Source: an uncultured Brachyspira sp. (lineage in GTDB: Bacteria; Spirochaetota; Brachyspiria; Brachyspirales; Brachyspiraceae). From it: 32,833 nt of DNA. Shown piece after piece: positions 21,093 through 27,594 of the stretch; position 1 is the stretch's first letter, and every line of letters starts with the position of its first letter. The DNA lies in assembly GCA_944392715.1 (NCBI GenBank), contig CALXXQ010000070.1, forward strand, positions 1 through 32,833. Direction: 5' to 3'. Made by a program: the position numbers and the translations under genes. The notes below the pieces were generated by a model. The model made no database searches and had not been told where the DNA came from. It saw only the letters and a program-made list of their open reading frames with translations.

Positions 21093-21638
21093 TTAATTAT
21101 CCCAAGTATTGTTGCTGCTATTAGTAGTTTTTATAGCTATTTTTATATTATTTTTTGAATCTTCTGGGAGCTTATATCCTTCTTTTGCTGATACTTTTAA
21201 TGTTACAGTACCAGTAGCAGAAGAATCTGTAACTGTATAATCTGTGCTGTCATCTAAAACTATACCAACTTTTTCTAACTCAGATTTTATGCTCGCTTTT
21301 TTACCTTCTAAAGAAGTTTTTGTAGTAGATTTTTTAGGCTTTGCTGTAGCTGCATCTACTTCTGCTGTGTATGTTCCTTTAGAATAAGTACCGTCTTTGA
21401 TTTTGTCTGTACTATTAACAGTCAAATCTTTAAGAGCGGTTTTTAAAGCATTTGCGATTTGTTCATCAGTAATGTTTTTTACTTCTGAACTTCCACCTGT
21501 AGGAGCAGATGGAGTTGTTTGTGTGTCTCCTGATGTTGGAGCAGATTCTGTAGGGTTTGTTGTTTTGTTGTTACAGCTTACTGCAAATATTGCTGATGCT
21601 GCAAGAACTAAAAATAATGTAAAAATTTTTTTGTTCAT
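21093..21638 (-). CDS. Lipoprotein of unknown function
   Basis: From the ATG at 21638 (GGAGT eight bases upstream) the product is 181 residues. It begins MNKKIFTLFLVLAASAIFAV followed by the lipobox SC (Cys22), so it should be lipid-anchored. A Thr/Ser/Pro/Gly-rich linker (about 24-45) follows, then a soluble domain of about 130 residues with ITDEQIANALKTALKDLTV and a Lys/Ser/Thr-rich beta-like part. I do not recognise the family; small variable lipoproteins of this build are common in spirochaetes. Another in-frame start 36 bases upstream adds non-signal residues and is unlikely. The mRNA leader may be about 200 nt long. Confidence 0.85.
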   Translation of the reverse strand: MNKKIFTLFLVLAASAIFAVSCNNKTTNPTESAPTSGDTQTTPSAPTGGSSEVKNITDEQIANALKTALKDLTVNSTDKIKDGTYSKGTYTAEVDAATAKPKKSTTKTSLEGKKASIKSELEKVGIVLDDSTDYTVTDSSATGTVTLKVSAKEGYKLPEDSKNNIKIAIKTTNSSNNTWDN

Positions 21639-21851
21639 ATTTTGAACTCCTTTATTGAAATTTATAATAAACATTATTTCTAATGCTTATTTGAAAAATT
21701 ATTTATAGAAACATTTATATTTTTTGATATGATATTTATTAAGAACTATTTGATTTTTTATTGTAAAAATTGATTTTTAGTTTGTGTAATCTAACTTTAC
21801 AACTGCATTGTCTTATTTTTTTATCAATGTTTCTAACTTAACTATACTAAA

Positions 21852-25796: not shown

Positions 25797-25919
25797 ATTG
25801 AATCTCCATAAATTAATTTCTATAACTATAATATAAATAATTATTTATTCAATACTTATTATTATAAAAATAATTATTAATTATATATGTGAGTTTTGTA
25901 TTATTTCAATTATAATAAA

Positions 25920-25943
25920 AAATTGACAAATATTTTTATATTT
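25920..25943 (+). repeat. 24-bp direct repeat, left copy of cassette boundary
   Basis: A 24-bp sequence (core TTGACAAATATTTTTATATT) at 25920-25943 recurs without mismatch at 29834-29857. The two copies bracket the leader ORF, the MBOAT gene and its partner. In this copy the -35-like TTGACA has no -10 at the right distance. Confidence 0.85.
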
Positions 25944-25970
25944 GACTTTAAATAAAAAATATAATATTAT
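25942..25970 (+). promoter_or_regulatory. Promoter of the O-acetylation cassette
   Basis: TTGACT (25942-25947) and TATTAT (25965-25970) have a 17-bp spacer, giving a start near 25977 and a 35-nt leader before the ATG at 26012. Confidence 0.65.
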
Positions 25971-26011
25971 TCTCAAAAATTACTAATAACTAAAATTTGG
26001 AGAATATTATA

Positions 26012-26200
26012 ATGCAGGTAACCGCACCGCACCGCACCGCACCGCACCGCACCGCACCGCACCGCACCGCACCGCACCGCACCGCACCGCACCGCAATAT
26101 AATAATTAATTTATTATATGTTTCTACATGTTTAATAAAAAAAATATTTTTAAATAAAAAATTTATAGTCATGGAGTTATTATGTTATTTAGCTCTATGA
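26012..26200 (+). CDS. Repeat-bearing leader ORF upstream of the MBOAT gene
   Basis: An ATG at 26012 with GGAG at 25999-26002 (nine-base spacing) opens a 62-codon frame: MQV, five copies of TAPHR encoded by fifteen ACCGC units, then a hydrophobic tail (IIINLLYVSTCLIKKIFLNK and on) ending at a TGA at 26198-26200. The stop is 19 bp inside the MBOAT gene, in another frame. With a copy number not divisible by three, translation stops at 26100-26102 or 26107-26109 (present coordinates), 70-80 bases short of the MBOAT start. I infer a leader whose reading state sets MBOAT translation. It could also make a functional small peptide, or be untranslated. Confidence 0.6.
   Translation: MQVTAPHRTAPHRTAPHRTAPHRTAPHRNIIINLLYVSTCLIKKIFLNKKFIVMELLCYLAL
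26021..26095 (+). repeat. Pentanucleotide tandem repeat (ACCGC) x 15
   Basis: Fifteen perfect copies of ACCGC with no interruption. The repeat is 80% GC in a genome segment of roughly 25-30% GC. Because the unit is five bases, every plus-strand frame encodes the same TAPHR cycle. Adding or losing a unit leaves the peptide repeat as it is but shifts the downstream frame. Confidence 0.97.
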
Positions 26201-27594
26201 TTTTTTTATGGCTTTTTTTGCCGATAGTATTTTGCAGCTATTATATAATCGATAGAAAATTTAGAAATGTTTTTCTTTTAATAGCAAGTATTATATTTTA
26301 TGCTTGGGGCGGAGTAAGCTATACTTTAATAATGTTTTCTTCTATAATAATTAATTATATTTTTGCATTATTAATAGATAAGTCAATAGAAGAAAATAAT
26401 AAATTAAAGAAGAAAATATATTTAGCTTTATGTATAGTAATTAATTTATCTATATTGGGTTATTTCAAATATACAGATTTTTTTATATCAATAATAAATT
26501 CAATATCAGGTAAAGAAGTAATATCATTAAAAAATATAGTTCTTCCTATAGGAATATCTTTTTATACTTTTCAGGCATTATCTTATGTAATAGATGTTTA
26601 TAGAGAACAAAATAAAGCTCAGAGAAATATTATTAATTTAGCATTATATATATCTTTTTTTCCTCAGCTTATAGCAGGACCAATAGTTAAATATCATGAT
26701 ATAGATATTCAAATAATAAATAGAACAGAAAGTTTAGAAAATATAAGTTATGGTATAAAGAGGTTCATTTACGGACTATCAAAAAAGGTAATACTAGCCA
26801 ATATGTTTGCTTTATCCTGCGATGAAATATTAAAACAGCCTGTAGATGAACTTTCTACGATTTTAGCATGGCTTGCTGCTATTTTGTATACACTTCAGAT
26901 ATATTATGACTTTTCAGGTTATTCAGATATGGCTATAGGTTTAGGCCATATGTTCGGATTTAAATTTTTAGAGAATTTTAATTATCCTTATATATCGAAG
27001 TCTATTCAGGAGTTTTGGAGAAGATGGCATATATCTTTATCTACTTGGTTTAAGGAATATTTATATATCCCTTTAGGTGGAAATAGAAAGGGTAAATATT
27101 TTACTTATTTAAATTTGTTCATTGTATTTTTTGCTACAGGTTTATGGCATGGAGCTAGTTTTAATTTTATCCTTTGGGGCTTATGGCATGGATTATTTTT
27201 AGTAATAGAGCGTATATTTTTAGGAAAATTATTAGAAAAGAATAAATTAAAGTTTTTTAATCATATTTATGTAATATTTGTATTTGTATTAGGTTGGGTA
27301 CTTTTTAGAGCTAATGATTTAAAACATGCTTTAGAATTATATAAATTAATGTTCAGTTATAAAGAAAGTATTTTTACCGTAAGATATTTCTTTTATCCTC
27401 AAACACAAGTATGTTTTGTATTTGGTATATTATTTTGCGGCTTATTTCAGGGTATATTTCCAAAGATTAAAGCAGCAATATTTTCAAGTAGAGTATATGT
27501 ACTAGAAACTATTATTCAATTCATACTCCTATTTATCTGTATTATGTATTTAGTTAATGGTACTTATAACCCATTTATTTATTTTAGATTTTAA
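26182..27594 (+). CDS. MBOAT-family O-acyltransferase (AlgI-like)
   Basis: The 470-residue membrane protein has about ten or more helices and the MBOAT features of AlgI/PatA/DltB: FYAWGG near residue 40, YFKYTDFF, PIGISFYTFQALSY, AGPIVKY, YYDFSGYSDMAIGLG, FWRRWHISLSTWFKEYLYIPLGG, and the catalytic-His region GLWHGASFNFILWGLWHG (H323, H336). AlgI-type proteins pass an acetyl group across the membrane to a periplasmic partner that acetylates a polysaccharide. The ATG at 26182 follows GGAG with five-base spacing and lies within the 3' end of the leader ORF. The partner gene starts 12 bp downstream. The target glycan is unknown. Confidence 0.93.
   Translation: MLFSSMIFLWLFLPIVFCSYYIIDRKFRNVFLLIASIIFYAWGGVSYTLIMFSSIIINYIFALLIDKSIEENNKLKKKIYLALCIVINLSILGYFKYTDFFISIINSISGKEVISLKNIVLPIGISFYTFQALSYVIDVYREQNKAQRNIINLALYISFFPQLIAGPIVKYHDIDIQIINRTESLENISYGIKRFIYGLSKKVILANMFALSCDEILKQPVDELSTILAWLAAILYTLQIYYDFSGYSDMAIGLGHMFGFKFLENFNYPYISKSIQEFWRRWHISLSTWFKEYLYIPLGGNRKGKYFTYLNLFIVFFATGLWHGASFNFILWGLWHGLFLVIERIFLGKLLEKNKLKFFNHIYVIFVFVLGWVLFRANDLKHALELYKLMFSYKESIFTVRYFFYPQTQVCFVFGILFCGLFQGIFPKIKAAIFSSRVYVLETIIQFILLFICIMYLVNGTYNPFIYFRF

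What the first reader, a model, noticed from the sequence alone, without database searches (positions are those of the whole stretch)
25942..26200. Pentanucleotide-repeat leader ORF as a possible translational switch for an O-acyltransferase
Seen: fifteen ACCGC units inside an ORF with promoter (25942-25970), Shine-Dalgarno (GGAG, 25999) and ATG (26012). Every frame of the repeat encodes TAPHR, so unit gain or loss never breaks the repeat itself. At 15 units the ORF runs on to 26200 and ends 19 bp inside the MBOAT gene. With a remainder of one or two the stop comes at 26107-26109 or 26100-26102, some 70-80 bases before the MBOAT start. Known: simple repeats vary in copy number by slippage and drive phase variation; overlapping upstream ORFs can couple translation. 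Inferred: MBOAT, and so surface O-acetylation, is high when the copy number is divisible by three and low otherwise. I know of no described leader that works this way with a frame-neutral repeat peptide.
Basis: partly seen in the sequence, partly recalled or inferred. Interest (0 to 1): 0.85.

Follow-up and report, generated by a model that had tools for sequence, protein, structure and literature searches.

The report
Repeat-counting leader gates surface O-acyltransferase
In Brachyspira gut spirochetes, all 16 copies examined of this acyltransferase gene, which likely decorates surface sugars, have a short leader reading frame with a five-base repeat just ahead of them, and the leader is predicted to act as a genetic coin-flip: gaining or losing one repeat would decide whether ribosomes reach and open an RNA hairpin predicted to hide the gene's ribosome-binding site.

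Summary
The genus is Brachyspira. All 16 orthologues found in 26 genomes carry a 5-bp array in such a leader, but the unit differs (ACCGC, ACAGC, ATCGC, AATAC, AACAG, decayed ACCGA): period and place are kept, not sequence. In 16 of 16 the MBOAT frame is closed and the +1 frame runs to the MBOAT start; 9 leaders now read ON, 7 OFF. New: the MBOAT Shine-Dalgarno (SD) lies in a predicted hairpin in all 16 (SD unpaired 0.00-0.04 in 15; 0.37 in the one with a decayed array). A paralogue class shows the same pair (8 of 8); a third class has neither (0 of 22). Best reading: a slippage-driven switch in which a leader ribosome in the right frame opens the SD hairpin. A frame-neutral repeat peptide is a property of any unit not divisible by three. 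Switching and expression are untested.

The parts
25942..25970 (+). promoter-like site TTGACT-17-TATTAT
   Evidence: similar match at the same place in 16 of 16 orthologues
25999..26002 (+). leader Shine-Dalgarno GGAG
   Evidence: GGAG before the leader ATG in 14 of 16 orthologues (not G001, G020)
26012..26200 (+). leader ORF, 62 aa, stop TGA 26198-26200 inside MBOAT
26021..26095 (+). (ACCGC)15 array, frame-setting repeat
26100..26109 (+). stop codons of the two other leader frames (26100-26102, 26107-26109)
26168..26179 (+). 5' arm of predicted hairpin, holds the MBOAT SD
26173..26176 (+). MBOAT Shine-Dalgarno GGAG, predicted unpaired 0.00
26190..26201 (+). 3' arm of the hairpin (within MBOAT codons 3-7)
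26182..27594 (+). MBOAT O-acyltransferase, 470 aa
   Evidence: PF03062
27607..29835 (+). AlgX-like SGNH protein, likely cotranscribed partner
   Evidence: PF16822; starts 12 nt after MBOAT ends

Best explanation
The sequence holds a leader reading frame with a five-base repeat whose copy number would set the frame in which ribosomes leave the repeat, and this is predicted to act as a phase-variation switch for the downstream MBOAT/AlgX-like acyltransferase pair. Shown: the leader, the array, a closed MBOAT frame, at least one other frame that runs to the MBOAT start, and their conservation in 16 of 16 orthologues. Predicted: a hairpin that buries the MBOAT SD. Inferred: slippage changes the count by one unit. 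In an ON count the leader ribosome runs into the hairpin, opens it and ends at or just past the MBOAT start, so MBOAT is translated (translational coupling). In an OFF count it stops well upstream (75 or 82 nt before the start in the window), the SD stays buried and MBOAT is little made. The likely outcome is on/off O-acylation of a surface glycan.
For: Array in the leader of 16 of 16 orthologues with different units; G004 and G006 have flanks 93% (upstream) and 98% (spacer) identical, yet all units are ATCGC in one and ACCGC in the other. MBOAT frame closed 16 of 16, +1 frame reaching the start 16 of 16, +2 also in 6; over 85 nt upstream, the +1 frame is open in 1 of 22 class-3 genes and 2 of 19 other window genes. 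SD hairpin: MFE -9.3 to -18.7, at most 7 of 200 shuffles as low in any of 16; SD unpaired mean 0.027 against 0.225 in 22 array-free paralogues and 0.44 in 19 other window genes. Paralogue class 2: array and hairpin 8 of 8; class 3: neither, 0 of 22. The one orthologue with a decayed array (G018) also has the most open SD, 0.371. ON in 9, OFF in 7 of 16. With a modelled 31-nt ribosome footprint at the ON stop the SD goes from 0.00 to 0.45 unpaired; at either OFF stop it stays 0.00. Three more leader peptides in public data reach a similar end with fewer repeats (3 hits of 4 candidates; such a search can only show leaders that were predicted as proteins).
Against: No expression, ribosome or same-strain copy-number data. 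One genome per species was held, so copy number differs only between species here; a search with the G007 leader found no relative. Hairpin changes are mostly one-sided wobble changes: 1 of 12 pairs changes on both sides, and covariation equals the shuffles (93.5% against 93.2% of cells paired), although slid pairings fall to 33-45%. The 3' arm lies in codons of a conserved N-terminus, so part of its constancy is protein constraint, and classes 1 and 2 share that start region, so their hairpins may share an origin. Class-3 SDs are weak (TGAG) and themselves partly paired (0.11-0.37). In the window alone an open frame has P 0.08; over 45 nt, 7 of 22 and 8 of 19 control genes are also open in +1, so short spacers (all of class 2) say little. 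Two closed frames stop only 18-19 nt before the start (G016 frame 0, G001 frame +2), close enough to disturb the hairpin. In 11 of 16 a U-run follows the hairpin, so transcription attenuation is not excluded. Of six other pentamer-leader copies, four show no special start hairpin. The loci are related, so the counts are not independent.
Confidence: 0.72

Rival explanations
1. Transcription attenuation as in S. gallolyticus pil1: the hairpin is a terminator in the start of MBOAT and a leader ribosome in the ON frame prevents it. Same switch and same sign, different step.
For: In 11 of 16 class-1 orthologues seven T follow the hairpin; precedent with a GCAGA leader (PMC3894217); a pentamer leader followed by a strong hairpin with a T-run exists in another spirochete, G068.
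Against: The terminator scan finds none here (it allows loops up to 8, this one is 10, so this is weak); the T-run lies in MBOAT codons and is shorter or broken in 5 of 16; class-2 copies have the array and a hairpin but no T-run directly after it, while the buried SD is common to both classes.
Confidence: 0.15
2. Opposite sign: leader ribosomes that run over the MBOAT SD and start block initiation, so overlap means OFF and early stop means ON.
For: Leader stops mostly lie 8-16 nt past the start in the open frames, and elongating ribosomes can mask a start (general knowledge).
Against: With no ribosome on it the SD is predicted buried (unpaired 0.00), so the early-stop state should be the silent one.
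Confidence: 0.07
3. The array is a neutral slippage hotspot or a protein-binding array, without a role in gating MBOAT.
For: No functional data; tandem arrays are common typing markers (general knowledge; no call).
Against: Unit sequence is replaced while period 5, site after a leader start, closed MBOAT frame and open overlapping frame are kept in 16 of 16, and arrays go with SD hairpins across paralogues (24 of 24 against 0 of 22).
Confidence: 0.06

Closest known systems
S. gallolyticus pil1/pil3 phase-variable leader peptide (PMC3894217; abstract, sections 13 and 16 read)
   Same: Pentanucleotide repeat inside a leader ORF; out-of-frame unit changes move the leader stop from upstream of a hairpin into or past it; raises expression of a surface structure.
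   Different: There the hairpin is a transcription terminator upstream of a pilus operon in a Gram-positive. Here the hairpin is predicted to bury the target's own SD, the leader overlaps the target start, the target is an acyltransferase, and the unit has been replaced repeatedly across a genus.
In-ORF repeat contingency loci (H. influenzae tetranucleotide loci; PMC2651432, passages seen; Neisseria opa recalled)
   Same: Slippage of a unit not divisible by 3 near a start codon; same repeat peptide in every frame.
   Different: Here the repeat is not in the target's frame: MBOAT frame closed in 16 of 16.
Translational coupling by an SD-burying hairpin (general, recalled)
   Same: Upstream ribosomes open the hairpin and stop at the downstream start.
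   Different: Here coupling would be set by repeat copy number.
H. influenzae lex2A/lex2B (arrangement recalled; a repeat at lex2A seen in a table of PMC2651432)
   Same: Repeat-bearing short ORF before a glycan gene (recalled).
   Different: Coupling there not checked; no SD-hairpin comparison made.

Membership tests
Repeat-switched leader-peptide attenuator (pil1 type) | Leader ORF with a frame-shifting repeat | tested here: met
   16 of 16 orthologues
Repeat-switched leader-peptide attenuator (pil1 type) | Out-of-frame change moves the leader stop across a hairpin | tested here: met
   closed frames stop 18-171 nt before the start (24 of 26 of them 46 nt or more), open frames at -5 to +43, hairpin around the start
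Repeat-switched leader-peptide attenuator (pil1 type) | Hairpin is an intrinsic terminator | tested here: inconclusive
   T7 run in 11 of 16, scan finds none, class 2 lacks the run
Repeat-switched leader-peptide attenuator (pil1 type) | Copy number varies between clones and changes expression | not testable with these tools
   one genome per species held
Translational coupling by SD-burying hairpin | Downstream SD predicted paired | tested here: met
   unpaired at most 0.037 in 15 of 16, 0.371 in G018
Translational coupling by SD-burying hairpin | Upstream ORF ends at or overlaps the downstream start | tested here: met
   -5 to +43 nt in 16 of 16 for the +1 frame; the leader as it now reads does so in 9 of 16
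Translational coupling by SD-burying hairpin | Downstream translation depends on the upstream ORF | not testable with these tools
   needs a reporter
In-ORF repeat contingency locus | Repeat lies in the target's own frame | tested here: not met
   MBOAT frame closed 16 of 16 and 8 of 8 class 2 (in G006 only 6 nt before the start)
MBOAT family | PF03062 above cut-off | tested here: met
   112 bits, cut-off 27

The most novel reading that the evidence does not exclude
Brachyspira carries a genus-wide class of frame-gated phase switches: a leader ORF with an exchangeable pentanucleotide repeat whose copy number decides whether a ribosome opens an SD-burying hairpin, so a mutational counter drives translational coupling rather than transcription or the target's own frame. 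It flips two acyltransferase families, and related leaders sit before glycosyltransferase-like genes.
Probability: 0.6. Interest if true: 0.82.

Novelty: new variant of a known kind. Interest (0 to 1): 0.74.

Why it matters
If true, it gives Brachyspira a repeat-based phase-variation system for surface glycans, readable straight from reads (copy number modulo 3), and a second, apparently independent example of a switch in which repeat number acts through a leader ribosome and a hairpin. The repeated replacement of the unit at one site, with period and frame logic kept, would be a clean case of selection on frame alone.

Tried and rejected
Fusion of leader and MBOAT: rejected, MBOAT frame closed 16 of 16. 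Sequence-specific binding array: unlikely, the unit changes. Frame-neutral peptide as a special design: rejected, arithmetic. Covariation as support for the hairpin: not found. Rfam: no match up to E 1 in 25800-26400. Hairpin at other leader loci: only G002x/G021x (the G002 and G021 ATCGC copies) are low against shuffles (6 and 5 of 200 as low); G001x 42, G010b 199, G012a 86, G012b 83 of 200 are not. Open frame at those loci against shuffled spacers: P 0.0004 (G010b), 0.002 (G012b), 0.0068 (G012a), but 0.17 and 0.18 (G002x, G021x) and 0.33 (G001x). Viral contigs: 0 hits. The G007 leader found no relative.

Full report
What is there. The window is contig C70 of an unnamed, 86% complete genome. 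Another genome of the same genus, G007, carries a contig 97% identical to Brachyspira hyodysenteriae plasmid pBHWA1 over 5972 of the 6001 bases searched, so the genus is Brachyspira; the window's species is not known. MBOAT (PF03062) is followed after 12 nt by an AlgX-like protein (PF16822), which together resemble an alginate-type O-acylation pair (recalled); the substrate is unknown.

Orthologues. A protein search of 26 same-genus genomes listed 47 places in 25 genomes. Sixteen are orthologues by identity (75-100%; the rest are at most 45%). All 16 have a five-base array right after a leader ATG: ACCGC in G000, G002, G005, G006, G007, G012, G017, G021, G025; ACAGC in G014, G015, G016; ATCGC in G004; AATAC in G001; AACAG in G020 (whose MBOAT has an internal stop); decayed ACCGA, five units, in G018. 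G004 and G006 differ in every unit while the flanks are 93% (upstream) and 98% (spacer) identical: the unit was homogenised, as slippage turnover would do (inference).

Frames. Relative to MBOAT, frame 0 is closed before the start in 16 of 16, frame +1 reaches it (stop at -5 to +43) in 16 of 16, frame +2 also in 6 (G002, G007, G015, G017, G020, G021). Closed frames stop 18-171 nt before the start; two of them, G016 frame 0 and G001 frame +2, stop only 18-19 nt before it and might still disturb the hairpin. The leader as it stands reads ON in 9 (G000, G005, G007, G012, G015, G016, G017, G020, G021) and OFF in 7 (G001, G002, G004, G006, G014, G018, G025). Shuffled spacers give the same kind of openness with P 0.08 for the window and 0.0045 for G018; short spacers give about 0.4 and say little alone. 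At 85 nt, +1 is open in 1 of 22 class-3 genes and 2 of 19 window genes; at 45 nt in 7 of 22 and 8 of 19. Loci are related, so I multiply nothing.

Hairpin. In all 16 the MBOAT SD lies in a predicted hairpin with the start codon unpaired (unpaired 0.91-1.00). Pairs form in 93.5% of cells against 33-45% for slid pairings, but covariation is not above shuffles and only 1 of 12 pairs changes on both sides. Predicted SD accessibility is at most 0.037 in 15 of 16 and 0.371 in G018, whose array has decayed and whose SD reads GGAA. One of 19 other window genes is as closed (0.00; the next is 0.14).

Natural control. The other 31 places are 39-45% identical paralogues; one (G013) begins at a contig edge and was left out. 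Eight (class 2; G005, G006, G008, G010, G015, G017, G019, G024) have an AAACC array of 27-94 nt and an SD hairpin of -13.9 to -18.0 kcal/mol; in all 8 the gene frame is closed (in G006 only at -6) and another frame reaches the start. G024 begins inside its array, so its leader start is not seen. Twenty-two (class 3) have no array (longest period-5 run 12 nt within 420 nt upstream; only 101 nt were available for the G000 copy) and no hairpin (-1.2 to -5.5). Class-3 SDs are weak (TGAG) and partly paired (mean 0.225). Class 2 has no T-run directly after the hairpin, so what the two array classes share is the buried SD, not a terminator. That is why I prefer coupling to attenuation. Classes 1 and 2 have similar start regions, so their hairpins may share an origin.

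Other pentamer leaders in the genus. A GGAG-ATG-array pattern hit 19 of 26 genomes. Non-MBOAT targets: a GT61 glycosyltransferase (G001; array AACGC), a protein with a below-cut-off glycosyltransferase match (G002, and by its near-identical start G021; ATCGC), a 75-aa protein without a family (G010; ACAGC, open frame of 275 nt, P 0.0004), and, before G012 arrays found by the ACCGC search, a TM2 protein and a small Cys-rich protein with only below-cut-off zinc-finger matches (P 0.0068 and 0.002; no SD-ATG directly before these two arrays). P is not small for the G001, G002 and G021 copies (0.33, 0.17, 0.18). In G008 the leader ends 38 nt before the next gene, and in G003 the contig ends before any gene is seen. 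In G013, and in G023 where the contig begins inside the array, the array is in the frame of a long ORF, and in G020 a second array precedes a long open frame: ordinary in-ORF switches. Of 172 genomes outside the genus in a phylum draw of 198, five matched the pattern; by eye only G068 has arrays.

Literature. PMC3894217 (abstract and sections 13, 16 read) describes the same logic with GCAGA repeats and a terminator in S. gallolyticus. The searches listed no report of this switch in Brachyspira: Brachyspira with phase variation (9 papers), Brachyspira with tandem repeat (25 papers, 20 listed), Brachyspira/LOS/acyltransferase terms (5 papers), and leader, coupling and repeat terms (6 papers, 51 papers, 20 listed, 28 papers, 20 listed, 43 papers, 20 listed). 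I judged these by title and start of abstract. Beyond that I saw only passages matched by search terms: PMC5415613, PMC9611606, PMC3711429, the B. hyodysenteriae and B. pilosicoli genome papers PMC2650404 and PMC2897892, PMC2651432; the phase-variation review PMC11868660 held none of six terms. None of these passages mentions it. Only open-licence papers are held.

Shown, predicted, inferred. Shown: array, leader, frames, conservation, unit replacement, array-hairpin association. Predicted: hairpin, SD burial. Inferred: slippage within a strain, coupling, sign, glycan effect.

Noticed in passing
L265 (G068:C15), and L264 contig end: Another spirochete (outside the genus) has an SD-ATG leader with a few ATCGC-like units; its ATG frame stops inside a -24 kcal/mol hairpin followed by a T-run, while the other frames stop before it, ahead of a gene that looks lipoprotein-like by eye: resembles a pil1-type attenuator.
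   Followed up: partly
G012, G014, G017 leaders (L181, L184, L189): The array is a mosaic breakpoint: G012/G017 share upstream DNA (91%) but not spacer (69%); G012/G014 share spacer (92%) but not upstream (68%).
   Followed up: partly
L172, L173 (G019), L174, L175 (G021): Contigs of two genomes break at or just after near-identical leader arrays, suggesting several copies of the downstream sequence per genome.
   Followed up: no
L215 / L259 (G010): Two different pentamer arrays (GAACA x16, ACAGC x10) follow each other within about 400 nt, each after its own ATG.
   Followed up: partly
class-2 loci L194, L197, L204, L206: The class-2 leader ATG seems to sit about 10 nt after a TATAAT-like box, so it may be leaderless; seen by eye only.
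   Followed up: no
window 21093-21674: An ORF (193 aa, no Pfam match) whose start region also folds strongly (-10.4) and is probably the one closed SD among the 19 window genes; not examined further.
   Followed up: no
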